Assembly (NCBI GenBank): GCA_017483225.1 | Contig: JAFULF010000025.1 | Location: forward strand, 1-64,000 | Direction: 5' to 3' | DNA from: Alistipes sp. | Lineage (GTDB): Bacteria > Bacteroidota > Bacteroidia > Bacteroidales > Rikenellaceae | DNA length: 64,000 nucleotides | Part shown: one piece after another, positions 620 through 63,142 of the stretch | Numbering within the stretch: position 1 is the stretch's first letter | Layout of the letters: the number at the start of each line of letters is the position of its first letter | Program-made: the position numbers and the translations under genes | The notes under the pieces: model-generated | The model's input: only the letters and a program-made list of their open reading frames with translations | Told to the model about the DNA's origin: nothing | Database searches by the model: none

Positions 620-1327
620 ATGAGGAGGTTCTGTATCATATCGCTTTTGGCGGGGCTCTGCCTCCTGCTGCCGGATACCCTTGCGGCGCAGGAGGGTGGT
701 GTGCCCGTCACAGATGCCGCCCCGACAGCCACTGTGGATGCACAGAATGATGGTGCTCCGATGCTTACGCAGGAGCAGATGGTGGCGTACGGAGTGCAGG
801 CAGACACGACCCTCTCTCGGCGTGAGAAGCAGCGCCTTCAACGTCAGCTGCAAAAAGAGTCCTACTTCGATACGGGCTACTTCGGCTCGGTCAATTGTGC
901 CATCGGACTTATGTCGCCTCATCTGCGCTTTGCCTCCGGACTGGATATCGTCAATGGCTATAATTGGAGGTGGTTTGGCCTGGGCTTCGGTGTGGGCTAT
1001 TGCACCCGTGCCGGTGTCTCCCGAAGCTATATGACGCTGCCTCTCTTTATCACCCTGCGGGCCGAGATTATGGATAGCAAGGTGACACCAATCGTGTCAC
1101 TCAACCTCGGCTACGCCTATGGCAAACAAGTTGATGGCAAGCCTGCTGACGATGGCTTTGTAAAAGTCAAGCCTGTCGAGGGGAATATGGCCTATGGAGA
1201 GGCTAAGGTGGGCTTTGGAGTGCACTTGGCACCACAATATGTGCTTGACTTTATGTGGGGCTTCTCTGTCCACTACGGGGATAGCTTTGAGTTTGGGCCG
1301 AAGTTTGGGTTGGGCTTCCGCTGGTAA
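620..1327 (+). CDS. Predicted outer-membrane beta-barrel protein, function unknown
   Basis: The 235-residue product starts with a clear signal peptide (about residues 1-23, cut after LAAQ). A 60-residue polar linker contains SRREKQRLQRQLQKE. The rest is rich in Gly and aromatic residues with alternating hydrophobic positions (YNWRWFGLGFGVGYC) and ends GLGFRW, a C-terminal aromatic typical of barrel insertion. It lies 5 nt after the lipocalin-like lipoprotein, suggesting an envelope pair. I do not recognise a named family. Its TAA stop overlaps the first bases of repeat element A1. Confidence 0.7.
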   Translation: MRRFCIISLLAGLCLLLPDTLAAQEGGVPVTDAAPTATVDAQNDGAPMLTQEQMVAYGVQADTTLSRREKQRLQRQLQKESYFDTGYFGSVNCAIGLMSPHLRFASGLDIVNGYNWRWFGLGFGVGYCTRAGVSRSYMTLPLFITLRAEIMDSKVTPIVSLNLGYAYGKQVDGKPADDGFVKVKPVEGNMAYGEAKVGFGVHLAPQYVLDFMWGFSVHYGDSFEFGPKFGLGFRW

Positions 1328-1449
1328 AAATCATTTTAAGGGGTGATTTCTTCCTTTGTCTGCGTGCGACGTGATAGTCACATACGCCGAGTATGCTCCT
1401 ACCACGTCGTACTCGACGGCGTTGAAATCCCCTCCTTAAAATGATTTTT
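1326..1449 (+). repeat. Family A structured repeat, copy A1 (subtype I)
   Basis: Terminal inverted repeats AAAAATCATTTTAAG (1326-1340) and CTTAAAATGATTTTT (1435-1449) pair perfectly over 15 bp. Inside, GTGCGACGTG pairs with CACGTCGTAC and encloses a CATAC-GCCGA-GTATG hairpin. The element begins on the second base of the upstream TAA stop codon. It is nearly identical to copies at 52386 and 53679. Confidence 0.9.
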
Positions 1450-1466
1450 TTTGTGCGGTAGGTCGG

Positions 1467-1620
1467 GCGCAAGAATTTAATGGCTATTAAGGGAGTTAAG
1501 GGATATTAAGGGATGTTAATGTTGCGCCGAGAGATTGCGGACTCTTACGACCTTGCCCTAAATCGCTTGCGTTTCCCTTAATTACCTTTAATCACCTTTA
1601 ACAACCTTTACCGTTGCGCA
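1467..1620 (+). repeat. Family B repeat (TTAAGGG array), copy 1
   Basis: GGCGCAA opens the unit. Next come about four TTAAGGG-type units spaced 9-10 bp, then TTGCGCC, which can pair with the opening bases. A conserved core (TTGCGGACTCTTACGACC) leads to GCTTGCG and a complementary array of CCCTTAAT/CCTTTAA units ending in CCGTTGCGCA. Other copies lie at 17651 (inverted), 23217, 23591, 46847, 52664 and 63165. Confidence 0.88.
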
Positions 1621-1812
1621 AGAATTTAATGGTTATTAAGGAAGTTAAGGGATATTAAGGGTTGTTAATGTTGCGCCGAAAGGTTGCGGATTCTTACGAC
1701 CTATCCACAAATCGCTTGCGTTTCCCTTAAATTCCCTAAATTCCTTAAACTCCCTTTGCGCTTGACCTTACCTGACCTTACTCGACTTTACTTGACCTTA
1801 CGTTGCGCAAAA
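1614..1812 (+). repeat. Second B copy merged with D- and C-type arrays
   Basis: A second TTAAGGG array and core start at the last GCGCA of the first copy. The right arm switches to D-type units (TTCCCTAAATTCCTTAAAC, 1733-1751). From about 1756 there are four 10-bp C-type units: CTTGACCTTA, CCTGACCTTA, CTCGACTTTA and CTTGACCTTA, ending CGTTGCGC. The stretch to 1852 holds no gene, so the whole 1328-1852 gap is repeat sequence. Confidence 0.85.
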
Positions 1813-1852
1813 GTGCCATTCAATGCCATCGCTTGCGCTTGCCCCCCCCGCA

Positions 1853-2650
1853 CTACTGCATCACGAAGTTGAGCAGGGCTTGGGCGCAGGCATCAGGCTC
1901 CTCGATGAAGCCCATATGGCCCGAGTTTGGGAGCCATACGGTCTGCGCTTGTGGGTGCGCATCTGCCATCTTTTGGCCCACCTCCTCGGAGATGTAGCCA
2001 TCCTTGCGGCCCAAGATAAAGAGTTGAGGCACAGCCGACTTGCGCAGCATCTCGTTGCGGTCGGGGCGCATCGCCATACCTGCCAGCAGGGCGATGATTC
2101 CGCCATCCTCGGTCAGGTGCACGGTCTCGACCAAATCCTCGATGTAGGAGGCGAGGCGGCGGCGATTCTCGACGGCAAAGCCCGCCTCGGGGGCTGTCTT
2201 GGCGAGCAGCTCCTTCTTGCCGGCCCGCACCAAGGCAATCTCACGCTCTCGGTTCTTGCGCTTCTCGTCGCTGTCGGCATTGGGTGTGGAGCTTAGCAGT
2301 ACGATGCCGGCGCATCTGTCCGGATGACGCTCGCACAGCGCCAGGGCGACATATCCGCCCATAGAGTGCCCGACGATGAAGGCCTGCTCCACGCCGAGCG
2401 TGTCGAGCGCCGCAGTCACCGTGTCGGCCAGATACTCCATCGTGTGACACTCGCCCTTGACCTCCGAGATGCCGTGGCCGGGCAGGTCGATGGTCACAAC
2501 ACGTACCTGCTTGTATAACAGCGGGATAAACTCCTCCCACACAAACATATTCTCCAAGTAGCCGTGCAGCAGAACAACGCACTTGTCGCCCTGCTCGGAG
2601 TCGCATATATGCAGGGCTGTGTCGCCCGCCATAATAAATTTCTCAACCAT
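1853..2650 (-). CDS. Alpha/beta-fold hydrolase
   Basis: The 265-residue product is a typical single-domain alpha/beta hydrolase. The oxyanion loop is [10 protein letters not shown] near residue 28. The nucleophile elbow is GHSMGG near residue 94, with Ser as nucleophile. The acid is probably Asp in ILGRKDGY, and the base is His in [11 protein letters not shown] near the C-terminus. No signal peptide is seen, so it should be cytoplasmic. The substrate cannot be told from sequence; the family includes esterases and C-C hydrolases. It is transcribed divergently from tamL from its own -7 box about 60 bp upstream. Confidence 0.88.
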
Positions 2651-2712
2651 AGTTTGCAGTAAAAAATCTTGTCGTAAAGATAAAAATTATCTTTTATCCT
2701 CTTTTCTGACCT

Positions 2713-2720
2713 CAAAAGTA
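2713..2720 (-). promoter_or_regulatory. -7 box of the alpha/beta hydrolase promoter
   Basis: On the minus strand this reads TACTTTTG, matching the Bacteroidetes -7 consensus TAnnTTTG. It lies 63 bp upstream of the hydrolase start and 23 bp from the divergent tamL box. Confidence 0.6.
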
Positions 2721-2743
2721 GCGATTTTTTCGTAATTATTACG

Positions 2744-2751
2744 TATCTTTG
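2744..2751 (+). promoter_or_regulatory. -7 box of the tamL-dxs promoter
   Basis: TATCTTTG matches TAnnTTTG. A T-rich stretch about 20 bp upstream could serve as the -33 region. Transcription from here would give a leader of about 125 nt before the tamL ATG. Confidence 0.6.
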
Positions 2752-2880
2752 AACGATTATATACCTACTTTGGGGTAAAACGGGCCGACGGTGTGCCCGC
2801 TAAGTGGCTCACGGGGTGTGAGTTTGTGGACAAAGTGGGCTTTGTGGAGAATTTATTGCAGTGTAAAACGGAAAGGGCAG

Positions 2881-5262: not shown

Positions 5263-5286
5263 CAATAAAAAAAGAGCATAACCGAT

Positions 5287-7161: not shown

Positions 7162-7163
7162 CA

Positions 7164-7952: not shown

Positions 7953-7979
7953 ACTCCAAACAAAAGTTTTATCCGAGGT

Positions 7980-8144: not shown

Positions 8145-8684
8145 ATGGCTGTTAAAATTCGTTTGGCACGACATGGTAAGAAGGCTTACGCTTTCTATCA
8201 CATTGTTGTTGCAGATAGCAGAGCGCCACGTGATGGTAAATTTATCGAGAAATTGGGTACTTACAACCCTAACACGAATCCTGCTACAATCGACTTGAAC
8301 TTCGAGCAAGCTCTGAGTTGGTTAATGAAGGGCGCACAACCTACCGATACTGCTCGTGCGATTCTTTCGTACAAGGGCGTATTGTACAAGAAGCACCTGC
8401 TTGGTGGTGTAGCAAAGGGCGCATTCTCGGAGAGCGACGCTGAGGCAAAGTTCAACAAGTGGCTCGGAGAGAAGGAGGGCAAGGTAACCGCTAAGGTTAA
8501 CAAGCTCGCTGCTGAGGCTAACGCCGACAAGAAGGCTCGTCTGACCGCTGAGGCTGCCGTTAAGGAGGCTCGTGCACAGGCCCTCGCTGAGAAGAAGGCT
8601 GCTGCCGAGGCTGAGGCTGCCGCTGCTGCCGCAGAGGAGGCTACCGAGGAGGCTGCTGTTGAGACAGAGGCTGCTGCCGAGTAA
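8145..8684 (+). CDS. rpsP: 30S ribosomal protein S16
   Basis: The first 80 or so residues are canonical S16 ([39 protein letters not shown]). The remaining half of the 179-residue protein is a long Lys/Ala/Glu-rich tail ending in runs of Ala and Glu. Such tails are usual in Bacteroidetes S16 but are absent from the 82-residue E. coli protein. The tail is likely an exposed helix on the ribosome. The next gene, rimM, encodes a 30S maturation factor, the usual pairing. Confidence 0.97.
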
Positions 8685-8716
8685 TTCGGACGTTGCACAA
8701 GCAGTTTCTTGTTGAG

Positions 8717-22167: not shown

Positions 22168-23070
22168 ATGTTCGACAAAATCTTCTCCGTATTGAGAGAG
22201 TACCTGCTGATGACGGTGGGTATGTGTTGCTACGCCTTCGGCTGGATTGGCTGTATCTTGCCCGCACGCTGTACGGGTGGCGGTGCAAGTGGTCTTTCGC
22301 TGCTCATCTACTACTTCTCCGGAGAAACCATCAGCATCGGTACTATGGTACTCATTATCAACGCTGTACTCCTGCTTATTGCAGGCTTCATTGTGGGGTG
22401 GAAGTTCGGCATCAAGACCATCTATTGCGTGCTTGTGCTCTCGCTGGCGATGTCCACGATGCAGGAGCTGTTTACGATGCCGGATGGTACCGTGCGGGAT
22501 ATCTTCAACCTCGATAACCGCCTGCTCTCGGCTATGCTCGGAGGTATCTTCTCGGGTATCGGTGTGGCGGTCTGCTTTGCGCAGGGCGGCTCCACGGGAG
22601 GTATCGATATCGTGGCGATGATGATTAACAAGTACCGCTCGGTGTCGTATGGAAAGATTGTGCGCTTCTCCGACTTCACCATCATCGCCGCCTCGCTGCT
22701 TCTGCCTGCCGAGGCAAATATCGGCATCGACGGCGTGATTTACGGCTTCGTGATGACCGTGGTGTTCAGCTATACGGTCGATATGCTTATGACGGGTAAC
22801 CAGCAGTCCAACCAGATACTTATCGTCTGCAAGGACTACGCCGCTATGGCGGATGCCATCAACAACAATGCACAGCGAGGTGCCACGGTGCTCGATGCCA
22901 CGGGCTGGTACTCGAAGCGAAAGTCAAAAATCGTTATGGTCGTGTGCCGTAAGCGAGATACATCTATGGTGTTGAAGGTTGTCAAATCCGTTGACCCTGA
23001 CGCCTTTATTACCGTCGGCTCCGTGATGGGTGTGTATGGTAAGGGGTTTGAGGCCCTCTCCAAGATATAA
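22168..23070 (+). CDS. YitT-family membrane protein
   Basis: The 300-residue protein has five or six membrane helices in the N-terminal two thirds (GCILPARCTGGGASGLSLLIY, GSTGGIDIVAMMINKY), then a cytoplasmic DUF2179 domain (about 215-295, SNQILIVCKDYAAMADAIN to GSVMGVYGKGF). Function of the family is unknown; a transport role is usually assumed. Its TAA stop shares two bases with repeat A2, so the element starts inside the stop codon. Confidence 0.92.
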   Translation: MFDKIFSVLREYLLMTVGMCCYAFGWIGCILPARCTGGGASGLSLLIYYFSGETISIGTMVLIINAVLLLIAGFIVGWKFGIKTIYCVLVLSLAMSTMQELFTMPDGTVRDIFNLDNRLLSAMLGGIFSGIGVAVCFAQGGSTGGIDIVAMMINKYRSVSYGKIVRFSDFTIIAASLLLPAEANIGIDGVIYGFVMTVVFSYTVDMLMTGNQQSNQILIVCKDYAAMADAINNNAQRGATVLDATGWYSKRKSKIVMVVCRKRDTSMVLKVVKSVDPDAFITVGSVMGVYGKGFEALSKI

Positions 23071-23191
23071 AAATCATTTTAAGAGCGATTTGCTTCCGCT
23101 ACCTCATTCTCGTCAATGGGCAGTACGCCAAGTACAGCCCATCGCCGAGCCTATCGGCGAGCGTTGCAACTCATCACTTAAAATGATTTTT
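23069..23191 (+). repeat. Family A structured repeat, copy A2 (subtype II)
   Basis: Terminal arms AAAAATCATTTTAAG (23069-23083) and CTTAAAATGATTTTT (23177-23191). The internal hairpin is TGGGC-A-GTAC-GCCAA-GTAC-A-GCCCA, followed by a small CGCCGA/TCGGCG stem. It starts on the last two bases of the yitT stop codon. Confidence 0.9.
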
Positions 23192-23216: not shown

Positions 23217-23372
23217 GGCGCAAGGTTTTAAGGGATATTAAGGGAGTTAAGGGACATTAAGGGTTATTAATGTTGCGCCGAGAGATTGCGGATTCTTACG
23301 ACCTATCCACAAATCGCTTGCGTTTCCCTTAATACCCTTTAATCACCTTTAACAACCTTTACTGTCTGCGCA
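23217..23372 (+). repeat. Family B repeat, copy at 23.2 kb
   Basis: GGGCGCAAGG, a TTAAGGG array of about five units, TTGCGCCGAGAGATTGCGG, the TTCTTACGACC core, and the CCTTTAA right-arm array. It is joined to A2 by a short GGGTTGT linker. Confidence 0.85.
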
Positions 23373-23375
23373 AAC

Positions 23376-23448
23376 GATAAGGTCTATTAAGGTCGGGTAA
23401 GGTCACGCACCCTGCGGGTGCTTTAAGGTCAAGTAAGGATAGCGCAAA
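23376..23448 (-). repeat. C-type array in reverse orientation
   Basis: On the minus strand this reads as CTTGACCTTA-like 10-bp units interrupted by a GCACCC-GCA-GGGTGC hairpin. The copy at 47165 has GCAACC-GCA-GGTTGC at the same place, a paired base change. Confidence 0.75.
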
Positions 23449-23449
23449 A

Positions 23450-23585
23450 GGGAATTTAATGAGTTTAGTGAGAATAGCCTTGCGCTCTCTAAATTCCCTA
23501 ATGTTGCGCCAAGCCCGTTGCGCAGCTCCGAAGGAGCGACCTTACTCGACTTTGCTTGACCTTACTTGACTTTAAGCCTGCGCAA
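23450..23585 (+). repeat. D- and C-type arrays
   Basis: 23452-23516 holds D-type sequence (GGGAATTTAATGAGTTTAG and TCTCTAAATTCCC, partly complementary). 23524-23536 holds the small GCTCC-GAA-GGAGC hairpin. 23538-23578 holds about four C units of 9-10 bp (CTTACTCGAC, TTTGCTTGAC, CTTACTTGAC, TTTA). No gene is seen here. Confidence 0.7.
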
Positions 23586-23590
23586 AAGGA

Positions 23591-23744
23591 GGCGCACAAG
23601 TTTAATGGCTATTAAGGAAGTTAAGGGACATTAAGGGTTGTTAATGGTGCGCAATACGCTGGCGGATTCTTACGACCTTGCCCAAAACCGCTTGCGTTAC
23701 CCTTAATCACCTTTAATCACCTTTAACAGCCTTTACCGTTGCGC
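23591..23744 (+). repeat. Family B repeat, second copy at 23.6 kb
   Basis: GGCGCAC opens and GGTGCGC closes the left TTAAGGG array. Where other copies have GCGCAA/TTGCGC this one has GCGCAC/GTGCGC, keeping the pairing. The core and right CCTTTAA arm follow. Confidence 0.85.
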
Positions 23745-23768
23745 CCACCCTCCCCTTAACAACAGAAA

Positions 23769-46440: not shown

Positions 46441-46564
46441 AAAAATCATTTTAAGGGGTATTTACTGCCGCTAACGGCTTCCTCGTCAATGGGCAGTACG
46501 CCGAGTACAGCCCATCGCCTCGTCATCCGCCGAGCGTTGTAACTACCTCCTTAAAATGATTTTT
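46441..46564 (+). repeat. Family A structured repeat, copy A3 (subtype III)
   Basis: Arms AAAAATCATTTTAAG and CTTAAAATGATTTTT (46550-46564). A GCCG-CTAA-CGGC hairpin lies near the left arm, and the GGGC-A-GTAC hairpin is central. It lies 75 bp after rpmH. Closely matches A11 at 63019. Confidence 0.9.
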
Positions 46565-46580
46565 TGTTGTGCAGGTGGGT

Positions 46581-46704
46581 AGAAAACCATTTTAAGAGCG
46601 ATTTGCTTCCGCTACCTCATTCTCAGCAATGGGAAATACGCTAAGTATGTCCCATCGCTTCGAATATCGGCGAGCGTTGCAACTCATCACTTAAAATGAT
46701 TTTT
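46581..46704 (+). repeat. Family A structured repeat, copy A4 (subtype II)
   Basis: The left arm reads AGAAAACCATTTTAAG, the right CTTAAAATGATTTTT (46690-46704). The internal hairpin is TGGGA-A-ATAC-GCTAA-GTAT-G-TCCCA, with two base pairs swapped relative to A2 (C-G to A-T and G-C to A-T). In tandem with A3. Confidence 0.9.
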
Positions 46705-46846: not shown

Positions 46847-47000
46847 GCGCACAAGTTTAATGGCTATTAAGGGAGTTAAGGGATATTAAGGGTAGTTAAT
46901 GTTGCGCCGAGAGATTGCGGACTCTTACGACCGGCCCACAAAATCGCTTGCGTTCCCCTTAATTACCTTTAATCACCTTTAACAACCTTTACCTTTGCGC
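46847..47000 (+). repeat. Family B repeat, copy at 46.8 kb
   Basis: GGCGCAC, the TTAAGGG array, TTGCGCCGAGAGATTGCGG, the CTCTTACGACC core and CCTTTAA right arm to TTTGCGCC. Confidence 0.85.
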
Positions 47001-47043
47001 CAAGTCCCCTTCTGCACACCCCTCTTTGCACGTCGTTCCCCCC

Positions 47044-51532: not shown

Positions 51533-52387
51533 ATGACAACAAAAGACGAAAAGATGGATGAGCAGGTGGGCAAGACGGGGGCCGAGGGGCAACCTTCTGC
51601 CTCGTCCTCCGCTGCGCCACGCCCTCGCCGTCGTCCGCTGCGACTCCCCTTTGATGGGCGGAAGCAGGATGTCGGAGGGTGGGCGTATGACCATCGCATA
51701 GGCTTGTGTATCACGCTGATAGTCTATCTGTCGCTGGGCATTGCCTTCTTCTCGTCGAAGATACTTATGGGGCGCAAACCCCACACGCAGGGGATGTATA
51801 TCGACCTCTCGACCGTCGAGCTGCTCGAACAGGAGCGTGACCGTCTGGCGGAGGAGGTGCGACGTGCCAACTCCAAGATTGATTGGAGCGCTATACGCAA
51901 CACCTCCTCAAACGAGAATGCCCTGAACGAGAACCTGCAAGATGACCGAGGCACGAACACCGCTGCGCTCAACTCCTCGGCGGAGGCTACGGAGCAGCGT
52001 ATGCGTGCCAACCGTGAGGCCTACGAGCGTGGTATGGCGGAGGTGGAGTCCATATCCAAGCGCAGTGAGAGCTCGGGCGAGAGCGACGAGCGTAAGGATA
52101 CCAAGGCGAAGGGGCGGGTCACTGTCTCCTTCTCGTTGAAAAACCCCGTGCGATACTCACGCCACCTTATCAAGCCCGCCTATCGCTGCGAGGGCGGTGG
52201 CGAGGTTGTCGTGAACATCATCGTAAACCAGAGTGGCGAGGTCACCTCGGCGTGGGTTAGCTCCGGAGGCGACGAGTGTATGCGCACAACAGCCGTGCAG
52301 GCTGCACGTGGCTCGAAATTTGATTACAACGAGAGCGCACCGGCGAAGCAGCAGGGGACTATAACTTATATATTCATCCCGCAGTAA
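51533..52387 (+). CDS. TonB-family C-terminal domain protein
   Basis: The 284-residue protein has a Pro/Arg-rich N-terminus, one membrane helix near residue 60 (GLCITLIVYLSLGIAFF), a charged periplasmic helix (about 95-180, LEQERDRLAEEVRRANSKID) and a C-terminal TonB-like domain (GGGEVVVNIIVNQSGEVTSAWV to GTITYIFIPQ). There are no ExbB/ExbD genes nearby, so it is an accessory or orphan energy transducer. Its stop codon overlaps repeat A5. Confidence 0.82.
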   Translation: MTTKDEKMDEQVGKTGAEGQPSASSSAAPRPRRRPLRLPFDGRKQDVGGWAYDHRIGLCITLIVYLSLGIAFFSSKILMGRKPHTQGMYIDLSTVELLEQERDRLAEEVRRANSKIDWSAIRNTSSNENALNENLQDDRGTNTAALNSSAEATEQRMRANREAYERGMAEVESISKRSESSGESDERKDTKAKGRVTVSFSLKNPVRYSRHLIKPAYRCEGGGEVVVNIIVNQSGEVTSAWVSSGGDECMRTTAVQAARGSKFDYNESAPAKQQGTITYIFIPQ

Positions 52388-52510
52388 AAAACCATTTTAA
52401 GGGGTGATTTCTTCCTTTGTCTGCGTGCGACGTGATAGTCACATACGCCGAGTATGCTCCTACCACGTCGTACTCGACGGCGTTGAAATCCCCTCCTTAA
52501 AATGATTTTT
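52386..52510 (+). repeat. Family A structured repeat, copy A5 (subtype I)
   Basis: Starts inside the TAA stop of the TonB-like gene and ends with CTTAAAATGATTTTT at 52496-52510. Interior almost identical to A1 and A7, with GTGCGACGTG/CACGTCGTAC and the GCCGA pentaloop. Confidence 0.9.
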
Positions 52511-52529: not shown

Positions 52530-52654
52530 AAAAAAACATTTTAAGGGCGATTTACTGCCGCTACCTCATTCTTGGCAATGGGCAGTACGCCAAGTACAGC
52601 ACATCGCCAAGAATCTCGGCGAGCGTTGCAACTCATCACTTAAAAGTGATTTTT
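52530..52654 (+). repeat. Family A structured repeat, copy A6 (subtype II)
   Basis: In tandem with A5 after a 19-bp GGGTTGTGCTGGTGGG-type linker. The right arm has one extra G (CTTAAAAGTGATTTTT), and the internal stem has one mismatch (GGGC/GCAC), so this copy is decaying. Confidence 0.88.
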
Positions 52655-52663
52655 TTGTGTTGT

Positions 52664-52788
52664 GGCGCAAGTATTTAGGGGCTATTAAGGGATTTAAGGG
52701 TTGTTAATGTTGCGCCGAAAGGTTGCGGATTCTTACAACCTTGTCACAACTCGTTTGCGTTTCCCTTAATAACCTTTACCGTTGTGCA
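52664..52788 (+). repeat. Family B repeat, shortened copy
   Basis: GGCGCAAG, two or three TTAAGGG units, TTGCGCCGAAAGGTTGCGG, the core, and a single CCTTTACC right unit before GTTGTGCA. It is about 30 bp shorter than the other copies. Confidence 0.8.
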
Positions 52789-52831
52789 ATATGCTGTTTG
52801 CGCTGCGAACCATTGACTTTACGCACACACT

Positions 52832-53680
52832 ATGATACGAAAACTATACATATCACTCTTACTGCTTGTGTCGGGAATATCTCTTCTCTCGGCGCAGGAG
52901 GTGCAGCCTTTGCAAAATCAAACGCAGGGGGTTGATTCTGTGGCGGTTATCTCTCCACAACAGCAGGGTGTGGCGAAGCGTTTCCCCACCTTCGGCCTAT
53001 GGCGCACATCCTATGTTGCTACGGGATTTCAGACCAACAAGCGCATCAGCGTAAACACTGCCGACGTTAAGTTCCAGTTCAGCATAGCCCTTCACCTATG
53101 GCGCATACGCAACAAGGCCGATATCCTCTTCACCTACACCCAGCATAGCGTCTGGGACATCTACCGCCCTTCGTGTCCCTTCCGAGAGACCGCCTACAAC
53201 CCCGGCATCTGGGCGGCGTGGCAGGTGAGCCGCAAGGTGGAGCTGCTCTTCGGTATTGAGCACGAGTCGAATGGTATGGGAGGGTTGGAGTCCCGCTCCT
53301 TCAACTATGCCACCGTGGCGTGTCTTTACGAGCCCTCGCCATATTGGCGGCTGGGTGCCCGCCTCTGGTACGGCTACTACGACATCGACAACATTGAGCG
53401 CTACTTCCGTTATCGTGGCGTAGGCCACCTCTGGGCGACGGTACACACCCCAAACAACCGCTTCCAGTTTACCGTGTTGGTAAACCCCTCAAATTGGTTT
53501 AAGAACTACAACCTCCACATCGAAACCTCGTGGCGGCTATCAAAAAGAAAAGGCGTAGTGCCATCGCTCTACGCCCAATATAGTTGCGGCTACGGAGATA
53601 CTATGCTCGACTACAACCGCTATCACACCTCCCTCCGGATTGGGATTGCGTTGAAGAATGATAATATCTCCCTCTATTAA
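52832..53680 (+). CDS. pldA: Outer-membrane phospholipase A (PldA/OMPLA type)
   Basis: The 282-residue product has a signal peptide ending LSAQ, then a 12-stranded barrel. Family motifs are DVKFQFSIALHLW, YTQHSVWDIY, CPFRETAYNPG, the active-site HESNG with His and Ser in the order H-x-S-N-G, and the Asn of SRSFNY. OMPLA hydrolyses phospholipids that reach the outer leaflet and acts as a calcium-dependent dimer. Its TAA stop overlaps repeat A7. Confidence 0.9.
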   Translation: MIRKLYISLLLLVSGISLLSAQEVQPLQNQTQGVDSVAVISPQQQGVAKRFPTFGLWRTSYVATGFQTNKRISVNTADVKFQFSIALHLWRIRNKADILFTYTQHSVWDIYRPSCPFRETAYNPGIWAAWQVSRKVELLFGIEHESNGMGGLESRSFNYATVACLYEPSPYWRLGARLWYGYYDIDNIERYFRYRGVGHLWATVHTPNNRFQFTVLVNPSNWFKNYNLHIETSWRLSKRKGVVPSLYAQYSCGYGDTMLDYNRYHTSLRIGIALKNDNISLY

Positions 53681-53803
53681 AAAACCATTTTAAGGGGTGA
53701 TTTCTGCCTTTGTCTGCGTGCGACGTGATAGTCACATACGCCGAGTATGCTCCTACCACGTCGTACTCGACGGCGTTGAAATCCCCTCCTTAAAATGATT
53801 TTT
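53679..53803 (+). repeat. Family A structured repeat, copy A7 (subtype I)
   Basis: It fills the gap between the convergent pldA and antiporter genes. It starts in the pldA TAA stop and ends 3 bp before the antiporter stop (53807). Interior matches A1 and A5 with one base change. Confidence 0.9.
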
Positions 53804-53806
53804 CTT

Positions 53807-55297
53807 TTAGAAGCGGATGACATCATCCAATCCCAACTCCTTATAGTGCGCCTGCAACTCCTCGTTGCGGTCGGAGAGTATGAGCAGCTTATCGCCGAGT
53901 TGTAGCGGTGTCTTGCCCTTAGGCACGAAGTAGTCGCCATCACGACACACCATCACAACGAGCGTATTATCAGGGAGTTTGATATGGCTCAGCTCATTGC
54001 CCGAGGCGAGCATCTGCTCATTCACATCCACCTCCGTAAATGCAGACTTCATACGGTCCTGCACCGCATCGCCGAAGGAGGTCTCCTTTTCGGAGTATGC
54101 CACACCGAAGGCGTTGGCTGCGCCGCTGACCGTCGTACCCTGCATAACCAGCGAGATGATGGTCACGATAAAGACCACGTTGAAAATCAGGTCGGCGTGC
54201 TCGATGCCCTCCACAAGCGGATAGGTGGCAAAGATGATAGGCACGGCACCTCGCAGGCCCACCCACGCAATGTAGCTGCGGGCCTTGAAGGTGTAGCGAC
54301 GGAAGGGTGCCATACAGGCAAATACCGCCGCAGGGCGTGCCACAAACATCATAAAGAGGGCCACGCCCACGCCCAGCAGCAGCGTGTGAGGCTCCAAGAG
54401 CGAGCGCACATTGACCAGCAGGCCGAGCATTATGAACATAATAATCTGCACGAGCCACGTCACGCCGTCGAAGAAGGTTATGAGCGTGCGCTTATGCACA
54501 ATCTTATGGTTGCCGACAACGAGGCCGGCGATATATACCGCCAGGTAGCCGTTGCCGTTGATGAGCGACGTGAAGGAGAAGGTGAAGAATACGAATGCCA
54601 GCAGCAGCACCGAGTAGAGCGAGGCGTTGTTGATGTTTATCTTGTTGATGCTCCACACCGCCGCCTTACCCAGCAGGAAGCCCAGAGCACATCCCAGCAC
54701 CATCTGCACCAAGAAGAGCACGATGCTTGCCCCTACACCCATACTCTCGCGTGTGGGCGAGAGTAGCGCAACGAGCAGCACCACAAGCACATACGCCATT
54801 GGGTCATTCGAGCCGCTCTCCAACTCCAACATTGGTCGCAGGTTCTCACGCAGGCCCTGCTTCTTGCTTCGCAGGATAGAGAACACCGAGGCGGAGTCGG
54901 TCGAGGACATCGTCGAGGCGAGCAGCAGTGCCGTAGGGAACGACAGCGCAACACCTGCCAGCGGGCTGACTAAATAGACAAACCCCGCAACGATAATGGC
55001 CGTGAGGAGCACACCCACCGTCGAGAGCACCAATCCCGGAGCCAGCACCGGCTTTATCTCCGAGAACTTCGTATCCATACCGCCCGAGAAGAGGATGATA
55101 CAGAGCGCCAACATACCGATAAACTGCGTCAGTTCCGGCGAGTTGAACGACAATATCTCGTAGCCAAAGAATAGTCCCACCGCCAAAAACAGCAGCAGGG
55201 CAGGTGCTCCAAAGCGGTAGGCAAACTTACCTGCCACCACGGCACTGAAAAGTAGGATTGCTCCTATCAGTAAGAAGTTTTCACTCGTAATCTCCAT
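53807..55297 (-). CDS. Cation/proton antiporter, NhaP2/CvrA type
   Basis: About 496 residues. The N-terminal CPA1 exchanger domain (12 helices, about 1-395) has GGMDTKFSEIKPVLAPGLVLSTVG, STMSSTDSASVFSILRSK and LELESGSNDPMAYVL, with the ion-binding Asp. The C-terminal TrkA_C-like domain (about 415-490, IKLPDNTLVVMVCRDGDYFV) probably senses a nucleotide. Members exchange potassium or sodium for protons. The ATG at 55297 abuts repeat A8; a second in-frame ATG (55306) lies inside the repeat arm and would add MKK. Confidence 0.93.
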   Translation of the reverse strand: MEITSENFLLIGAILLFSAVVAGKFAYRFGAPALLLFLAVGLFFGYEILSFNSPELTQFIGMLALCIILFSGGMDTKFSEIKPVLAPGLVLSTVGVLLTAIIVAGFVYLVSPLAGVALSFPTALLLASTMSSTDSASVFSILRSKKQGLRENLRPMLELESGSNDPMAYVLVVLLVALLSPTRESMGVGASIVLFLVQMVLGCALGFLLGKAAVWSINKININNASLYSVLLLAFVFFTFSFTSLINGNGYLAVYIAGLVVGNHKIVHKRTLITFFDGVTWLVQIIMFIMLGLLVNVRSLLEPHTLLLGVGVALFMMFVARPAAVFACMAPFRRYTFKARSYIAWVGLRGAVPIIFATYPLVEGIEHADLIFNVVFIVTIISLVMQGTTVSGAANAFGVAYSEKETSFGDAVQDRMKSAFTEVDVNEQMLASGNELSHIKLPDNTLVVMVCRDGDYFVPKGKTPLQLGDKLLILSDRNEELQAHYKELGLDDVIRF

Positions 55298-55422
55298 TTT
55301 TTTCATTTTTAGGGGCAACTGCTGCCTTTGTCTGCGTGTGGTTTGATGGTCACATACGGTAAGTATGCTCTCACCAAACCATACTCGACAGCGTTGCATT
55401 TACCTCCTAAAAATGAAAAAAA
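55297..55422 (+). repeat. Family A structured repeat, copy A8 (subtype IV)
   Basis: Arms TTTTTTTCATTTTTAGG (55297-55313) and CCTAAAAATGAAAAAAA (55406-55422), 17 bp perfect. The internal stem is GTGTGGTTTG/CAAACCATAC with hairpin CATAC-GGTAA-GTATG. It abuts the start codon of the antiporter gene. Confidence 0.88.
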
Positions 55423-55525
55423 CTCACTTTTTGGGAGGTCTCAGTTACCTTAATTTATCTTCAAAACCCTTGACGGCTGGGTATTTTCACCTTAAAAAAA
55501 GAGAAAATGCCCTTTGCCGTTAGGC

Positions 55526-55708
55526 TCTGCTTTGTCTGCGTGTGGTTTGATGGTCACATACATTCTCGGAGCGGTAGCGACTAAGCCTCCCTTTCTCAAA
55601 GGGAGGTTTGGAGGGAATGTAAATGTAAAAATCCCATAATCGCAGATTATGCTCCCACCAAACCATACTCGACAGCGTTGCATTTACCTCCTAAAAATGA
55701 AAAAAAAC
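55526..55708 (+). repeat. Family A repeat, interrupted copy A9 (subtype IV)
   Basis: The left part (TTTGTCTGCGTGTGGTTTGA) ends near 55561. A roughly 80-bp insert follows with the hairpin GCCTCCCTTT-CTC-AAAGGGAGG. The right part resumes at about 55643 (ATTATGCTCCCACCAAACC) and ends CCTAAAAATGAAAAAAAA. The flank CTCACTTTTGGGAGGTCTCA is shared with A8, so a larger block was duplicated. 55423-55525 and 55709-55803 hold no gene. Confidence 0.8.
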
Positions 55709-55803
55709 TCACTTTTGGGAGGTCTCAGTTACCTTATCTCTACATCTTTTGCGCTGTCATCGTCTGCGCCCGACCTTAGCCGAGCGCAAACCTGACATCT
55801 CCT

Positions 55804-56301: not shown

Positions 56302-56304
56302 TTC

Positions 56305-56505: not shown

Positions 56506-56743
56506 TCCCGATGCAAAAATAGCAAAACAATCTCTTTGGAGGGCATCTGTTTCCCTGTTGTTTGTGTAAGTTTTGTCTGTTTTTCTATTCTCCCCCCCCC
56601 GATGTTGTGTGCCTCGTCCCGTTTACTCAAATCACAAAATATTAAACTCATTTTTTTGGGGTGAGGCCTCTTCAACATACTCTCCTCATTTGAGGGGCTC
56701 TGCTTGGGTTGCAGAGGGTGGCACGTGGTCACCCGGCACGGAA

Positions 56744-57112: not shown

Positions 57113-57122
57113 AGTCAATCTT

Positions 57123-58154
57123 TTACTTTACCTCCCACGTGTCGCCGCTACGGAGCAGGTCGTCCATCGTGCGGATAGGGCTCGCCTCACGCACACGGTT
57201 GAGTTGCGCCTCCACCGCCTCGTCATAGATGCACGGCTCCTCGACCTCTCGGATGATACCCAGAGCTACGGGGTAGTCGGGGTAGCGCATCGCCGCAAGC
57301 ATACAGTGCAGAGTCGTATCCTCGCAGTGGGCATCGTGGGTCAGCACATCCTCCTCCGTGTAGCCATCCTCGCCGAGGGTCACGACCTTCAAGCGCAGGC
57401 CGTCGAGCACAAGGCCCTTATCCTTATTGGCGCCGAAGAGCATCTTCTCGCCATGGCGCAGGGTGATGGTGTGCTCGGCACGTGTGGCCTTGTCGCCGGC
57501 AAAGTCGGCGTGGGTCTTATTGTTGAAAATCATACAATTAACGAGGGCCTCGACCACCGACATACCTCGGTGTTTGGCAGCCGCCACGAGCAGCTCCTTC
57601 GTAAGCATCACCTCGGCATCCACCGTGCGGGCGAAGAATGTTCCCTTGGCACCTATGGCGAGTTCGCCGGGGTTGAAGGGGTGCTCCACGGTGCCGTAAG
57701 GCGAGGTCTTGGTCACCTTGCCGAGCTTGGTGGTTGGCGAGTACTGGCCTTTGGTCAGGCCGTAAATCTCGTTATTGAAGAGTATCAGGTTCAGGTCCAC
57801 ATTGCGTCGTATGGCGTGGATGAAGTGGTTGCCACCGATGGCGAGCGAGTCGCCGTCGCCGGTGCATACCCACACCGAGAGGTCGGGGTTGGCGACCTTG
57901 ATGCCCGTAGCCACCGCTGCGGCACGGCCGTGGATGGTGTGGAAGCCGTAGGTGCGCATATAGTATATGAAGCGTGACGAGCAGCCGATGCCCGATACGA
58001 AGACGAACTTCTCGTGCGGCTTGCCCAGCGCCTCGGCAACCTCCGGCAGGGCTCGTTGTACGGCATTCAGCACGGCGTGGTCGCCACAGCCGGCGCACCA
58101 CTTGACCTGCTGGTCGGACTTGAAATCTTCGGGTGTATATCTATATTCTGCCAT
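57123..58154 (-). CDS. korB: 2-oxoacid:ferredoxin oxidoreductase, beta subunit
   Basis: The 343-residue thiamine-diphosphate subunit has KWCAGCGDHAVLNAVQRAL, the cofactor motif CTGDGDSLAIGGNHFIHA and FNNEIYGLTKGQYSPTT. With KorA it oxidatively decarboxylates 2-oxoglutarate (or another 2-oxoacid) to the acyl-CoA and reduces ferredoxin, replacing the aerobic dehydrogenase in anaerobes. It starts 4 nt after korA. Confidence 0.95.
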   Translation of the reverse strand: MAEYRYTPEDFKSDQQVKWCAGCGDHAVLNAVQRALPEVAEALGKPHEKFVFVSGIGCSSRFIYYMRTYGFHTIHGRAAAVATGIKVANPDLSVWVCTGDGDSLAIGGNHFIHAIRRNVDLNLILFNNEIYGLTKGQYSPTTKLGKVTKTSPYGTVEHPFNPGELAIGAKGTFFARTVDAEVMLTKELLVAAAKHRGMSVVEALVNCMIFNNKTHADFAGDKATRAEHTITLRHGEKMLFGANKDKGLVLDGLRLKVVTLGEDGYTEEDVLTHDAHCEDTTLHCMLAAMRYPDYPVALGIIREVEEPCIYDEAVEAQLNRVREASPIRTMDDLLRSGDTWEVK

Positions 58155-58158
58155 AGCT

Positions 58159-59997: not shown

Positions 59998-60023
59998 TTT
60001 TGGATTTAGGATTAAAAATCCTA

Positions 60024-60031
60024 CAAAAGTA
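60024..60031 (-). promoter_or_regulatory. -7 box of the korAB promoter
   Basis: TACTTTTG on the minus strand, 27 bp upstream of the korA ATG. Confidence 0.65.
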
Positions 60032-60093
60032 GAAAAGATTGGCAGATTTTGCAAAGAATCGGGGCGGATTTTTACGGATGCACCGCCCTATCT

Positions 60094-60768
60094 CTACCTC
60101 ATCGAGTTCATTCGGATACTCGCTTTCACGAGTGCGAGGGCTCTCACACGGCTCAACTCGACATCCTTGTCGGCGTGGTGCGGGTTTTGGCTTACAAGTC
60201 GTATATATCCCTCACGGTCAGACTTCTGGATGTATTTTACCGTCACATACTCCTCGTCGTCGATATCTATCGAGAGCAGGTACATATCGCCCCAGAAGAT
60301 GTCGTTCACGTCGTGCAACTGCTTGTAGAGCACGATGTCGCCACTTTTTAGCAGTGGGTACATCGAGTCGCCCACAACATACACCGCACCGTCGCACTTA
60401 GGCAGATTTGGGATGTGTATATAATTTACGGGCGTAATCTCCTCATTGTTAGTGAATAACGGCACCAGACCCGCCGTGCCCTCAATCGAGTAGAGCGGCA
60501 CGCTCTGCAATGGTAGCGAGTTGTCGCTACGCAGACGGAAGGCGTTCGTAAGATTAGGCTCGGCATTGAACATCTTGCCCCGACCGTCGTCTATCCATTC
60601 GGGGTTGACGTTAAATTCTTGAACAAGAATGTTTCTGTTGCGGCTCGAAAGTCCCGCACGCCCCGTCTCAATCATCGAGAGGGCCGTCTTGCCAACTCCA
60701 AGTCGTTGTGCGAGTTGCTCTTGTGTCAAACCCAACGCCTTGCGGATAAGTTTTACTCTGCTGTCCAT
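60094..60768 (-). CDS. Phage-type repressor (XRE helix-turn-helix plus S24 peptidase)
   Basis: The 224-residue protein has an N-terminal XRE domain (LIRKALGLTQEQLAQRLGVGKTALSMIETGRAG). The C-terminal S24/LexA-like domain has the Ser in VGDSMYPLLKSGD and the Lys in EYVTVKYIQ. This is the layout of temperate-phage CI-type repressors that cleave themselves after DNA damage. An inverted repeat likely to be its operator lies just upstream, between it and a divergent small ORF; a terminase gene is 0.8 kb further on. Confidence 0.9.
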   Translation of the reverse strand: MDSRVKLIRKALGLTQEQLAQRLGVGKTALSMIETGRAGLSSRNRNILVQEFNVNPEWIDDGRGKMFNAEPNLTNAFRLRSDNSLPLQSVPLYSIEGTAGLVPLFTNNEEITPVNYIHIPNLPKCDGAVYVVGDSMYPLLKSGDIVLYKQLHDVNDIFWGDMYLLSIDIDDEEYVTVKYIQKSDREGYIRLVSQNPHHADKDVELSRVRALALVKASIRMNSMR

Positions 60769-60793
60769 AAAAAATCATTATATTTTATTATAC

Positions 60794-60829
60794 AAAAATT
60801 GAATAAATAGAGTACCAAATTCAATTTTT
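60794..60829. promoter_or_regulatory. Putative operator of the S24 repressor
   Basis: AAAAATTGAAT (60794-60804) and its exact complement ATTCAATTTTT (60819-60829) are separated by 14 bp. A third half-site, ATTCAATAA, lies at 60892-60900 just before the divergent ORF. Confidence 0.65.
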
Positions 60830-60834
60830 GGATA

Positions 60835-60842
60835 TATCTTTG
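60835..60842 (+). promoter_or_regulatory. -7 box of the divergent small ORF
   Basis: TATCTTTG, immediately right of the inverted repeat, so a bound repressor would block it. Confidence 0.6.
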
Positions 60843-60903
60843 CACTGCAAAGTTAAACTATTTAATTCGAAAATACAAATAAATCTATAAAATTCAATAA
60901 TTT

Positions 60904-61194
60904 ATGTACGCTATTTCAAGAGAAACTTATGCAGACCTTGCCCGACAGATATGTGAGGGGCTCTCGAACCCCTACTATTTCAACGGTGAGGTAAGCAGTG
61001 ATGACGGGGTTGCGGAGCACCGTCTGCTGGCGACACTTATTATATATAGACGGCAAGTTGAGCCGCTGGGGCAGGAGTTCGACACCATCACCGACATCAT
61101 CCCTGTGTGGTGGGAGTGTCACACCATCACTGATGGTGGGGAGGTGGAGAATGATTTTGACTTTCGTCTGTTCAAAAACCATTTTAAGGGGTGA
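60904..61194 (+). CDS. Small hypothetical protein whose 3' end lies in a repeat
   Basis: The 96-residue acidic product (MYAISRETYADLARQICEGL...) has no recognised domain; the middle has IPVWWECHTITDGGEVENDF. It is transcribed divergently from the phage repressor and likely controlled by it. The last codons, encoding KNHFKG, and the TGA stop are the left arm of repeat A10, so the original C-terminus was replaced by the insertion or the gene was extended into it. Confidence 0.65.
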   Translation: MYAISRETYADLARQICEGLSNPYYFNGEVSSDDGVAEHRLLATLIIYRRQVEPLGQEFDTITDIIPVWWECHTITDGGEVENDFDFRLFKNHFKG

Positions 61195-61298
61195 TTTGCT
61201 TCCGCTACCTCATTCTCAACAATGGGCAGTACGCCAAGTACAGCCCATCGCTTCGAATATCGTCGAGCGTTGCAACTTATCACTTAAAAATGATTTTT
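61174..61298 (+). repeat. Family A structured repeat, copy A10 (subtype II)
   Basis: Arms AAAAACCATTTTAAG and CTTAAAAATGATTTTT (61283-61298). The internal hairpin is as in A2. It overlaps the 3' end of the small ORF. Confidence 0.9.
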
Positions 61299-61314
61299 AG
61301 GTTGTGCAGGTGGG

Positions 61315-61432
61315 AAATTAGGGATTTTAATGAGATTGGGGAGTTTAAGGGATGCCAAGATTACTGCCCTTAAATTCCCTAAATTCCTTAAACTCCCTTC
61401 GTACTCGACCTTACTTGACCTTACGTTGCGCA
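61315..61432 (+). repeat. D- and C-type arrays, near copy of 46722-46842
   Basis: ATTTTAATGAGATTGGGGAG, TTTAAGGGATGCCAAGATTA, then CCCTTAAATTCCCTAAATTC and CTTAAACTCCC, then C units TACTCGACCT and TACTTGACCT, ending GTTGCGC. 61433-61589 is the terminase leader and holds no repeat I can see. Confidence 0.8.
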
Positions 61433-61589
61433 CCCCTTCCCGCAGTGCCATCTCTTCCGGAGCGATACCTCCGCACTGCGTAGAACCCGGTCGCCTGTAT
61501 CGAGGCAGCGGTTCTTTTTTTGATTTCTGTGGCTTTGTCATAGCCCTGACTATAAGAGAGTTTTGTCTTACAAATAAATTTATGAAAAG

Positions 61590-63020
61590 ATGAGTGAAAA
61601 AGTAAATGAAGTTACGCCGACCTTCGAGGAGTTTGCCCTCACGGTCTATCCTTTTCTGGATATAAGGCCCTTTCACGCAACCTACTACCGTCTGCTTCAA
61701 GCCTTTGCCGAGGGGCGTGTGCGCCGTCTTATAATCACGATGCCGCCCCAGCACGGCAAGAGTGTGGGCGCTACGACCCTCCTGCCGGCATATATGCTGG
61801 GCCTCGACCCCGATATGCGTATCGCCATAGCCTCCTACTCGGCCTCGCTCGCCTCACGTTTCAATCGTCGTGTGCAGCGCATCCTCGAAGGCGACGAGTA
61901 CGCCTCGCTCTTCCCGCAGACCACCATAAAGCGGGGCTCCAAGCCTCCGACGGTGGTGCGTACCTCCGACGAGGTGGAGGTTGTGGGGCGCAATGGTGTG
62001 CTGATGTCGGTGGGGCGTGAGGGGTCGCTGACGGGCAACCGTGTCGATTGCTTCATTCTCGACGACCTCTATAAGGATGCTGCCGAGGCGAACTCGCCCA
62101 TCGTGCGTGAGAACTGCTGGGAGTGGTACACCTCCGTCGTGCGGACACGTATGCACAACGCCTCCCGGGAAATCATCGTCTTCACACGCTGGCACGAGCA
62201 GGACCTTATAGGCACCATATCGCAGTTGGAGCCTGTGGTGGAGTTGCGGCAATGGCGAGATTTAGAACATATCACGCCCGATACGTGGGTGTCGCTCAAC
62301 TTCGAGGCGTTGAAGACCACTCCCGCCACCGAGATAGACCCGAGAGGCGAGGGCGAGCCTCTCTGGGGCGAGCAGCACTCGGCGGAGCTGCTCCTTGCCA
62401 AGCGCCGCCTTGACCCTCTGCGCTTCGAGTGTATGTATCAGGGGCGACCATCCGTCAGGGAGGGGCTTCTCTATGGCGACAACTTCGTGGAATACACAGA
62501 GTTGCCACGTGATATCGTGCGGCGTGGCAACTATACCGACACCGCCGATATGGGCGACGACTACCTCTGCTCGATATGCTATGCCGTCGATGCCGATGGG
62601 GTTATTTACCTGCTCGATGTCATCTATTCACGTGAGCCTATGGAGGTCACCGAGGCCCTTGTGAGCGATATGCTTCTGCGCACGCAGACACGCTTTGCGC
62701 TGGTTGAGAGTAACAATGGAGGTCGAGGCTTTGCACGTGTTTTACAACAGCGGGCACCTGCCGTGCGCATCGAGTGGTTCCATCAGTCGGCAGATAAGGA
62801 GGCCCGCATTTTGAGCAACTCCTCGACGGTGCTCCACACCATCCGCTTTCCGCAGGGGTGGCGTGAGCGGTGGCGTGAGCTCTACGCCCACCTGACCACC
62901 TATCGTCGCAAATTTGCCTCCAATCGCTGGCACGATGCCGCCGACGTTCTTACCGGTATTGTCGAGAAGGAGGTGTTTGCGGGGAAGGAGGGGGTTAGGG
63001 CGATACACTTTCTCCGATAA
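61590..63020 (+). CDS. terL: Phage terminase large subunit
   Basis: The 476-residue motor protein has Walker A MPPQHGKSVGATTLLPAYML, Walker B CFILDDLYKDAAEA, and the C-terminal RNase H-like nuclease with DTADMGDDYLCSICYAVDADG and late Asp in HDAADVLTGIVEKE. Length and motifs are intact. It should package phage DNA, but no small terminase, portal, protease or capsid gene follows, so it is an orphan from a decayed prophage. Its stop codon overlaps repeat A11. Confidence 0.9.
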   Translation: MSEKVNEVTPTFEEFALTVYPFLDIRPFHATYYRLLQAFAEGRVRRLIITMPPQHGKSVGATTLLPAYMLGLDPDMRIAIASYSASLASRFNRRVQRILEGDEYASLFPQTTIKRGSKPPTVVRTSDEVEVVGRNGVLMSVGREGSLTGNRVDCFILDDLYKDAAEANSPIVRENCWEWYTSVVRTRMHNASREIIVFTRWHEQDLIGTISQLEPVVELRQWRDLEHITPDTWVSLNFEALKTTPATEIDPRGEGEPLWGEQHSAELLLAKRRLDPLRFECMYQGRPSVREGLLYGDNFVEYTELPRDIVRRGNYTDTADMGDDYLCSICYAVDADGVIYLLDVIYSREPMEVTEALVSDMLLRTQTRFALVESNNGGRGFARVLQQRAPAVRIEWFHQSADKEARILSNSSTVLHTIRFPQGWRERWRELYAHLTTYRRKFASNRWHDAADVLTGIVEKEVFAGKEGVRAIHFLR

Positions 63021-63142
63021 AAATCATTTTAAGGGGCATTTACTGCCGCTAACGGCTTCCTCGTCAATGGGCAGTACACCGAGTACAGCCCATCGCCTCG
63101 TCATCTGCCGAGCGTTGTAACTGCCTCCTTAAAATGATTTTT
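63019..63142 (+). repeat. Family A structured repeat, copy A11 (subtype III)
   Basis: Starts on the second base of the terminase TAA stop and ends CTTAAAATGATTTTT at 63128-63142. Interior matches A3, with GTAC-ACCGA-GTAC at the tip. Confidence 0.9.

What the first reader, a model, noticed from the sequence alone, without database searches (positions are those of the whole stretch)
1326..63142. Family A: interspersed 125-bp elements whose internal stem is conserved by compensatory changes
Eleven copies (1326, 23069, 46441, 46581, 52386, 52530, 53679, 55297, 55526 interrupted, 61174, 63019) share 15-17 bp terminal inverted repeats. Subtype I has GTGCGACGTG/CACGTCGTAC and subtype IV has GTGTGGTTTG/CAAACCATAC: four pairs differ on both sides yet all ten pairs are kept. 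Between A2 and A4, GGGC/GCCC becomes GGGA/TCCC and GTAC/GTAC becomes ATAC/GTAT. The tip is a 4-5 bp stem with a five-base loop (GCCGA, GGTAA, GCCAA, GCTAA, ACCGA). This is the signature of selection on a folded RNA or single strand, or of an element family that multiplies with its fold intact. I know of no named family with these features.
Basis: seen in the sequence. Interest (0 to 1): 0.9.

Follow-up and report, generated by a model that had tools for sequence, protein, structure and literature searches.

The report
Replication-oriented hairpin elements at stop codons
Alistipes-type gut bacteria carry families of about 125-base DNA hairpins that often sit on the stop codons of genes, keep their shape while much of their sequence changes, and, judged by base skew, point the way the chromosome is copied, so they are likely single-strand-acting mobile DNA moved by an enzyme that would still have to be found.

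Summary
In detail: ten intact copies and one broken copy lie at the stated coordinates, and their pairing is far above chance. The elements belong to a family found in 39 of 61 same-genus genomes and in 5 of 22 genera of its family. The covariation is real: 30 of 49 pairs show two-sided changes. But the reading needs correcting. (1) The strand that folds best is not the gene-sense strand: the complementary (bottom) strand is more stable in 132 of 133 copies (DNA energies). (2) Orientation follows GC skew, a proxy for the replication strand: 116 of 125 oriented copies with the skew of the contig, against 57% of genes; 104 of 125 with local skew, against 60% of genes. (3) Copies dock on stop codons: 11 of 14 related genomes carry one at the end of dnaN, with differing cores; 16 more distant genomes carry none there. 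No Y1 transposase was found in 61 genomes, no integron integrase passed the cut-off, and ten element-rich genomes show no reverse transcriptase. Best reading: a single-strand DNA hairpin element that works like integron attC or REPINs but belongs to neither. The enzyme is unknown.

The parts
1326..1450 (+). Hairpin element, subtype I; left end on the stop codon of ORF 620-1327
23069..23191 (+). Hairpin element, CCGCTA core; left end on the stop of ORF 22168-23070
46441..46565 (+). Hairpin element, GCCGCTAACG core, best match to the model in the window (120.5 bits); first of a tandem pair
46581..46704 (+). Hairpin element, second of the tandem pair; tip GGGAAATAC/GTATGTCCC
52386..52510 (+). Hairpin element, subtype I; left end on the stop of ORF 51533-52387; first of a tandem pair
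52530..52655 (+). Hairpin element, second of the tandem pair
53679..53804 (+). Hairpin element, subtype I; left end on the stop of ORF 52832-53680, right end next to the end of a convergent - strand ORF (53807-55399)
55297..55423 (+). Hairpin element, subtype IV; outer arms changed to TTTTTTTC.../...GAAAAAAA on both sides
55526..55707 (+). Broken subtype IV copy: left terminal repeat missing, loop interrupted by an insertion of roughly 80-85 bp (end approximate)
   Evidence: (repeat D6); read by eye
61174..61298 (+). Hairpin element overlapping the last 21 bases of ORF 60904-61194
63019..63142 (+). Hairpin element, GCCGCTAACG core; left end on the stop of ORF 61590-63020

Best explanation
This is a family of roughly 125-bp DNA hairpin elements that often sit on stop codons, are oriented with GC skew and fold best on the strand complementary to the upstream mRNA, and they most likely act as single-stranded hairpin substrates that an unidentified structure-reading recombinase would cut and exchange. 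Shown by calls: high copy number, conserved length and tip, covariation, stop-codon docking, orientation with GC skew, more stable bottom strand, and different cores at the same docking site in related genomes. Inferred: that GC skew marks the replication strand here; that the bottom-strand hairpin is the working form; that copies spread and are exchanged through it, much as attC sites or REPINs are; that the more stable strand is kept on the leading-strand template because copies with it on the lagging-strand template would fold too often and be lost, or that insertion itself happens at the fork in one orientation. Stop codons are likely favoured because in tight operons they are the only place where an insertion leaves both genes intact. 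The enzyme is not identified.
For: Bottom strand more stable in 132 of 133 anchored copies with DNA energies (mean 6.4 kcal/mol), including 65 of 66 with other core types. Window copies 10 of 10; unrelated family-B hairpins of the window 3 of 7. One-sided changes on a tree of 116 type-II copies: WC<->A.C 104, WC<->G.U 43 in sense orientation, WC<->other mismatch 117; two-sided WC<->WC 171 (binomial p 5e-7 for 104 against 43). Orientation with the skew of the contig: 116 with, 9 against, 8 unoriented, and the majority orientation equals the skew sign in 19 of 19 contigs with an oriented copy; genes 664 with, 499 against (Fisher p 1.5e-17). With local skew of stretches up to 20 kb and one count per tandem group: 84 with, 17 against; genes 707 with, 467 against (p 2e-6). 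Of 18 copies whose 5' neighbour gene is antisense, 16 follow the contig skew. Stop codons: 76 of 133 left ends lie on the stop of an ORF of 90 or more codons; 26 of 133 left flanks carry the right arm of a preceding copy. dnaN: 11 of 14 genomes occupied at -4 to +3 nt of the stop with different cores; cysS 10 of 13 at -4 to +6. Polarity equals that of attC arrays: folded bottom strand on the leading-strand template (PMC11023631, passages seen).
Against: No enzyme was found: Y1_Tnp 0 of 61 genomes, integron integrase 0 of 61 over the cut-off though all 61 hold weaker hits, Y2_Tnp 0 of 61 but its control was silent too. No autonomous copy appears among the end-motif hits listed for G040 (100 of 166 listed). 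No target-site duplication: 4 of 133 against 2.8 expected. No excision or clean empty site was caught; orthologous gene ends without an element (L134, L175) are too diverged to show the joint. The A.C excess is weaker in other counts: 49 against 29 cells in A1, both below shuffled expectation, and A.C occurs in 23 and G.U in 21 of 48 pairs, so a few inherited pairs carry much of the excess of cells (116 against 36). The better-folding bottom strand is also what an RNA made from that strand would show. GC skew is only a proxy: by local skew EF-Tu and RpsB motifs agree in 4 of 4 stretches, but one RpsB (L335) lies against the sign of its whole contig, and the GroEL motif disagrees in 2 of 2; no rRNA motif was found in the stretches. 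Local skew gives a weaker bias (83% against 60%). Part of the covariation could come from template-switch correction of palindromes.
Confidence: 0.45

Rival explanations
1. Ordinary MITE: a non-autonomous copy moved by a DDE transposase that binds the double-stranded terminal repeats; orientation and stop-codon docking would come from selection afterwards.
For: Outer arms are shared by many copies within a clade (AATTTGTTGTGATAAG.../...CTTCTRACAACAAATT); interspersed, mostly intergenic, patchy between genomes.
Against: Outer arms differ between genomes and even between copies while staying complementary, and the inner core is the better conserved part across genomes; no autonomous copy seen in the listed part of G040; no target-site duplication; a MITE read at its double-stranded ends gives no reason for a strong orientation with GC skew or for a consistently better-folding bottom strand.
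Confidence: 0.2
2. Structured RNA: the bottom strand is transcribed as a small or antisense RNA, or the sense strand is a 3'-UTR hairpin that ends or protects the mRNA.
For: Covariation; conserved tip and internal loops; sense orientation at stop codons (56 of 81 within -21 to +15 nt); the bottom strand is also the more stable one with RNA energies (130 of 133).
Against: For a sense RNA, G.U should exceed A.C; it does not. Genes against the contig skew are rarely used (5 of 63 stop-docked copies). A Rho-independent terminator a few bp after a gene is almost completely repressed (PMC4824070, start of abstract in a search listing). No Rfam match to the elements (two further loci). For a bottom-strand RNA, no promoter or transcript evidence was available.
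Confidence: 0.2
3. Passive palindromes kept by replication: hairpins continually corrected by template switching at the fork, with copies in the harmful orientation lost; no dedicated enzyme.
For: Two-sided changes are the commonest class (171) and tend to be adjacent (32 adjacent against 6.4 expected if scattered, on a slightly different tree with 167 such changes, not corrected for hot positions); orientation follows GC skew.
Against: A fixed internal mismatch (A.A in all 55 tips that the pattern could score, of 67 type-II copies) survives correction; family-B palindromes of the same window show no consistent strand asymmetry; spread to many sites needs a transfer step.
Confidence: 0.12

Closest known systems
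Integron attC sites / CALIN arrays
   Same: Hairpin after a gene in sense orientation, sequence variable but fold conserved (recalled); bottom strand the folded one, that strand on the leading-strand template (PMC11023631 passages).
   Different: Scattered after housekeeping genes instead of in cassette arrays; no R-box pair (0 of 133 copies on either strand); no integron integrase over the cut-off in 61 genomes.
REPINs moved by RAYT (Y1) transposases
   Same: Intergenic hairpins in about a hundred copies, clusters, compensatory changes in the spacer, proposed single-strand mechanism (PMC3116915 passages).
   Different: No Y1_Tnp in 61 genomes; here the centre is the conserved part and the ends vary, the reverse of a REPIN; stop-codon docking.
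ERIC, NEMIS, YPAL and other enterobacterial/neisserial palindromic repeats
   Same: Length about 100-170 bp, long stem-loop (PMC2267715 passages); MITE-like intergenic units (PMC2759123 start of abstract in listing).
   Different: Exchange of whole cores under a fixed tip, docking on TAA, orientation with GC skew and one-strand stability were not described in the passages I saw.
IS200/IS605 elements
   Same: Target the lagging-strand template; transposase reads secondary structures at the ends (PMC6006769, start of abstract in listings).
   Different: No Y1 transposase in 61 genomes and no coding copy seen.

Membership tests
REPIN/RAYT | Y1 tyrosine transposase (PF01797) in the genome | tested here: not met
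   0 of 61 genomes; control rang in 5 of 14
REPIN/RAYT | Conserved ends, variable spacer | tested here: not met
   Core conserved across genomes, outer arms vary between genomes and copies
Integron attC | RYYYAAC / GTTRRRY boxes near the ends (consensus recalled) | tested here: not met
   0 of 133 on top and on bottom strand; 0.1 expected in shuffles
Integron attC | Integron integrase (TIGR02249) in the genome | tested here: not met
   0 of 61 over the cut-off; all 61 have weaker hits, which I read as other tyrosine recombinases (inference); the 14 controls also had none over the cut-off
Integron attC | Bottom strand is the folded, better-pairing strand | tested here: met
   132 of 133 copies by DNA energies
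Integron attC | Array of mobile gene cassettes | tested here: not met
   Copies follow conserved housekeeping genes; the motif of the gene after dnaN is still downstream at 180-540 nt in 11 of 14 clade-A genomes, beyond 1.1 kb in 3
DDE-type MITE | Target-site duplication | tested here: not met
   4 of 133 with direct repeats of 4 nt or more, 2.8 expected
DDE-type MITE | Autonomous copy with the same ends | tested here: inconclusive
   None among the end-motif hits listed for G040; 100 of 166 listed
Retroelement-driven RNA element | Reverse transcriptase in the genome | tested here: not met
   PF00078 in 21 of 61; none in ten element-rich genomes (G011 G017 G021 G022 G035 G038 G044 G051 G056 G059), which are 78-94% complete drafts
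Rfam RNA family | Match over the gathering score | tested here: not met
   Only a tRNA in the window; L135 and L166 give nothing over gathering, one weak miRNA-model match at E 0.014
Intrinsic terminator | T-run after the stem | tested here: inconclusive
   Present in most G000 copies of the window, absent from the ACAACAAATT right end common in clade A

The most novel reading that the evidence does not exclude
A new class of replication-oriented single-strand DNA hairpin elements, read by shape through a fixed TAC-loop-GTA tip and internal mismatches, whose interchangeable cores are exchanged at stop-codon docking sites by a recombinase that is neither Y1 nor integron type.
Probability: 0.3. 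Interest if true: 0.9.

Novelty: new variant of a known kind. Interest (0 to 1): 0.75.

Why it matters
If right, it is an attC/REPIN-like way of recognising DNA by the shape of one strand, in Bacteroidota, without the enzymes known to do it. It would give a natural system in which sequence is widely free while fold, position and replication polarity are held, so the question of what reads a single-stranded hairpin at the fork becomes directly testable. It also warns that strong covariation alone does not prove an RNA: here the more stable strand and the skew orientation point to the other strand and to DNA.

Tried and rejected
Two hairpin scans of 400 kb each of G040 and G060 used criteria that let ordinary folds through (219 and 263 hits, then 141 and 161); both were discarded and replaced by a tip-anchored scan (then 44, 52).

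Sense 3'-UTR RNA or terminator as the main reading: rejected on the G.U/A.C counts, the orientation and the missing T-run in clade A.

RAYT/IS200, integron and retroelement readings were tested through PF01797, TIGR02249 and PF00078. PF04986 is uninformative because its controls stayed silent.

The RNAalifold consensus recovered only the ten tip pairs, so the structure used was the column consensus of single-sequence folds, kept where at least 9 of 26 agree; it is derived from the same sequences, which favours it in the slid control.

The loop tally counts many hairpins on both strands (432 readings, not 432 hairpins) and orients them by the loop itself; I give it little weight. Viral contigs: 0 exact matches to the tip pattern. 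Literature: the eight searches listed nothing on such elements in Alistipes/Rikenellaceae; two of ten searches unused. No structure prediction was made.

Rows dropped: of 165 hairpins 40 unoriented and 21 inside ORFs (overlapping sets) and those without neighbours on both sides, leaving 97, the cysS row of G052 (L290), whose ORF end was mis-assigned, and 10 of 16 more distant rows each for dnaN and cysS already shown; G052 dnaN (split over two contigs) was not examined, copies outside core type II; unoriented copies.

Full report
OBSERVATION. The ten intact copies and the broken one are where the finding says. The ten fold as single long hairpins, with none of 200 shuffles per copy folding as well. 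A covariance model from 26 copies, eight of them from the window, finds the ten on the + strand at E 4.2e-13 or better. The window belongs to contig C16 of G000, an assembly of 1.86 Mb in 42 contigs.

DISTRIBUTION. One copy used as a blastn query hits 33 of 61 same-genus genomes. The model finds 39 of 61 at E 0.01, with at most 56 scored candidates per genome and both strands counted. In the family sample it finds 36 of 150 genomes, in 5 of 22 genera, at E 1e-4. In 400 kb of G040 a tip-anchored scan finds 26 hairpins, of which I take 17 intergenic ones to be family members; 400 kb of G060, which has no model hit, gives none. Other core types share the outline: outer arms, 105-110 nt between arm anchors in 131 of 133 anchored copies, and the apical TAC-loop-GTA.

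WHAT IS CONSERVED. Across genomes the centre (CTGCCGCTAACG, ATGGGCAGTAC-loop-GTACAGCCCAT, CGAGCGTTGTA) is conserved, while the outer arms are AAAAATCATTTTAAG in G000, AAAAACTAATTTTAAG in G028/G029 and AATTTGTTGTGATAAG in clade A. Some copies carry private arms that are still complementary (L157, L184, L101). Pair counts: 82.7% of 1255 cells paired, 30 of 49 pairs with two-sided change, covariation score 0.296 against 0.118 in shuffles and 0.068-0.154 when slid. The structure came from the same sequences, so the slid control leans in its favour.

WHICH STRAND. On a minimum spanning tree of 116 distinct type-II copies, read in the stop-codon-sense direction, one-sided changes between Watson-Crick pairs and A.C number 104, with G.U 43 and with other mismatches 117 (p 5e-7 under equal odds for A.C against G.U; tree edges are not fully independent). 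A.C on one strand is G.T on the other. Other counts are weaker: cells 116 against 36, but spread over 23 against 21 of 48 pairs; in A1 49 against 29, both below shuffled expectation. All agree that G.U is not favoured on the sense strand. In line with that, the bottom strand folds better in 132 of 133 copies with DNA parameters and 130 of 133 with RNA parameters (copies anchored on clade-A arms). The window's own copies show it 10 of 10 with both sets; unrelated family-B hairpins in the same window 3 of 7 with DNA and 2 of 7 with RNA parameters.

ORIENTATION. In stretches of G000, G040 and G041 from 20 contigs (one without an oriented copy), copies follow the sign of contig GC skew 116 to 9, with 8 unoriented, and the majority orientation equals the skew sign in 19 of 19 contigs; two of these contigs have skew near zero. 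ORFs of 100 aa or more follow it 664 to 499 (Fisher p 1.5e-17). Except for G040:C4 and G000:C16, the stretches were mostly chosen around known copies. With local skew of each stretch the numbers are 104 to 21, or 84 to 17 counting one per tandem group, against genes 707 to 467 (p 2e-6): weaker, same direction. When the 5' neighbour gene is antisense, 16 of 18 copies still follow the contig skew (p 0.007 against the gene rate), so gene direction is not the whole cause. GC skew as a proxy is only partly checked: by local skew EF-Tu and RpsB motifs agree in 4 of 4 stretches, one of them (RpsB in L335) against the sign of its whole contig; the GroEL motif disagrees in 2 of 2; no rRNA motif was found in the stretches.

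STOP-CODON DOCKING. Of 97 oriented copies in the first locus set, 81 have the 5' gene in sense and 56 of these start within -21 to +15 nt of its stop; the mirror arrangement occurs 3 times. Of 133 anchored copies, 76 begin on the stop of an ORF of 90 or more codons, mostly TAA 11-12 nt before the GATAAG anchor, and 26 follow another copy. For dnaN, 11 of 14 clade-A genomes (dnaN at least 89% identical to that of L108) have a copy starting -4 to +3 nt from the stop, with several core types; G035, G038 and G004 do not. None of 16 more distant genomes (77-81% identical) has one there (six of them rechecked with a wider tip pattern), although some of these, such as G024 and G027, hold model hits elsewhere. 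In the six rechecked the motif of the next gene lies 41-43 nt after the stop; in clade A it lies at 180-540 nt in 11 of 14 and beyond 1.1 kb in 3. For cysS, 10 of 13 clade-A genomes checked are occupied at -4 to +6 nt and none of six more distant ones. dnaN and cysS were chosen because copies had been seen there, so these rates are not genome-wide.

MECHANISM. The polarity matches that reported for sedentary integrons, where the folded attC bottom strand is kept on the leading-strand template (PMC11023631, passages). The elements fail attC membership (boxes 0 of 133; integrase 0 of 61 over the cut-off) and REPIN membership (Y1 0 of 61), and ten element-rich genomes lack any reverse transcriptase hit. 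I therefore propose that they work like attC or REPIN hairpins, through one folded DNA strand, with an enzyme still to be found; general tyrosine recombinases, which I take the weak hits in all 61 genomes to be, are natural candidates. That step, and mobility itself, are inferred. The rivals (MITE, RNA, passive palindromes) are scored separately.

LIMITS. Most genomes are incomplete drafts, orientation rests on GC skew, no close-strain pairs were available to catch movement, and searches were discarded for a lax criterion.

Noticed in passing
window 1470-1764, 23219-23746, 46850-47002, 52662-52790, 63165-63318: A second palindromic repeat family (family B, TTAAGGG-rich, with GCGCAAG/TTGCGC ends) often lies directly downstream of the elements; no consistent strand asymmetry in stability.
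   Followed up: partly
window 60094-63020: A repressor-like ORF (60094-60768, -) and a large ORF that reads like a phage terminase (61590-63020, +; both from recall, no search), the latter lying between elements at 61174 and 63019: possible prophage remnant.
   Followed up: no
window 55364-55736: Two subtype IV copies 284 bp apart, the second broken by an insertion that has its own small inverted repeat.
   Followed up: partly
L144 (JAFYSB010000041.1): A copy of the tip on a 5.4-kb contig labelled Paludibacteraceae: horizontal transfer or mis-binning.
   Followed up: no
L257, L265, L284, L214, L216 and others: A further core class with tip TTTAC-GCCGA-GTAAA; a flank AAAAAGTGTATTTTGTCGTTC seen with it also stands left of several type II copies.
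   Followed up: partly
window 8553-8681: Two 57-nt repeats, 70% alike, inside ORF 8145-8684, probably coding repeats.
   Followed up: no
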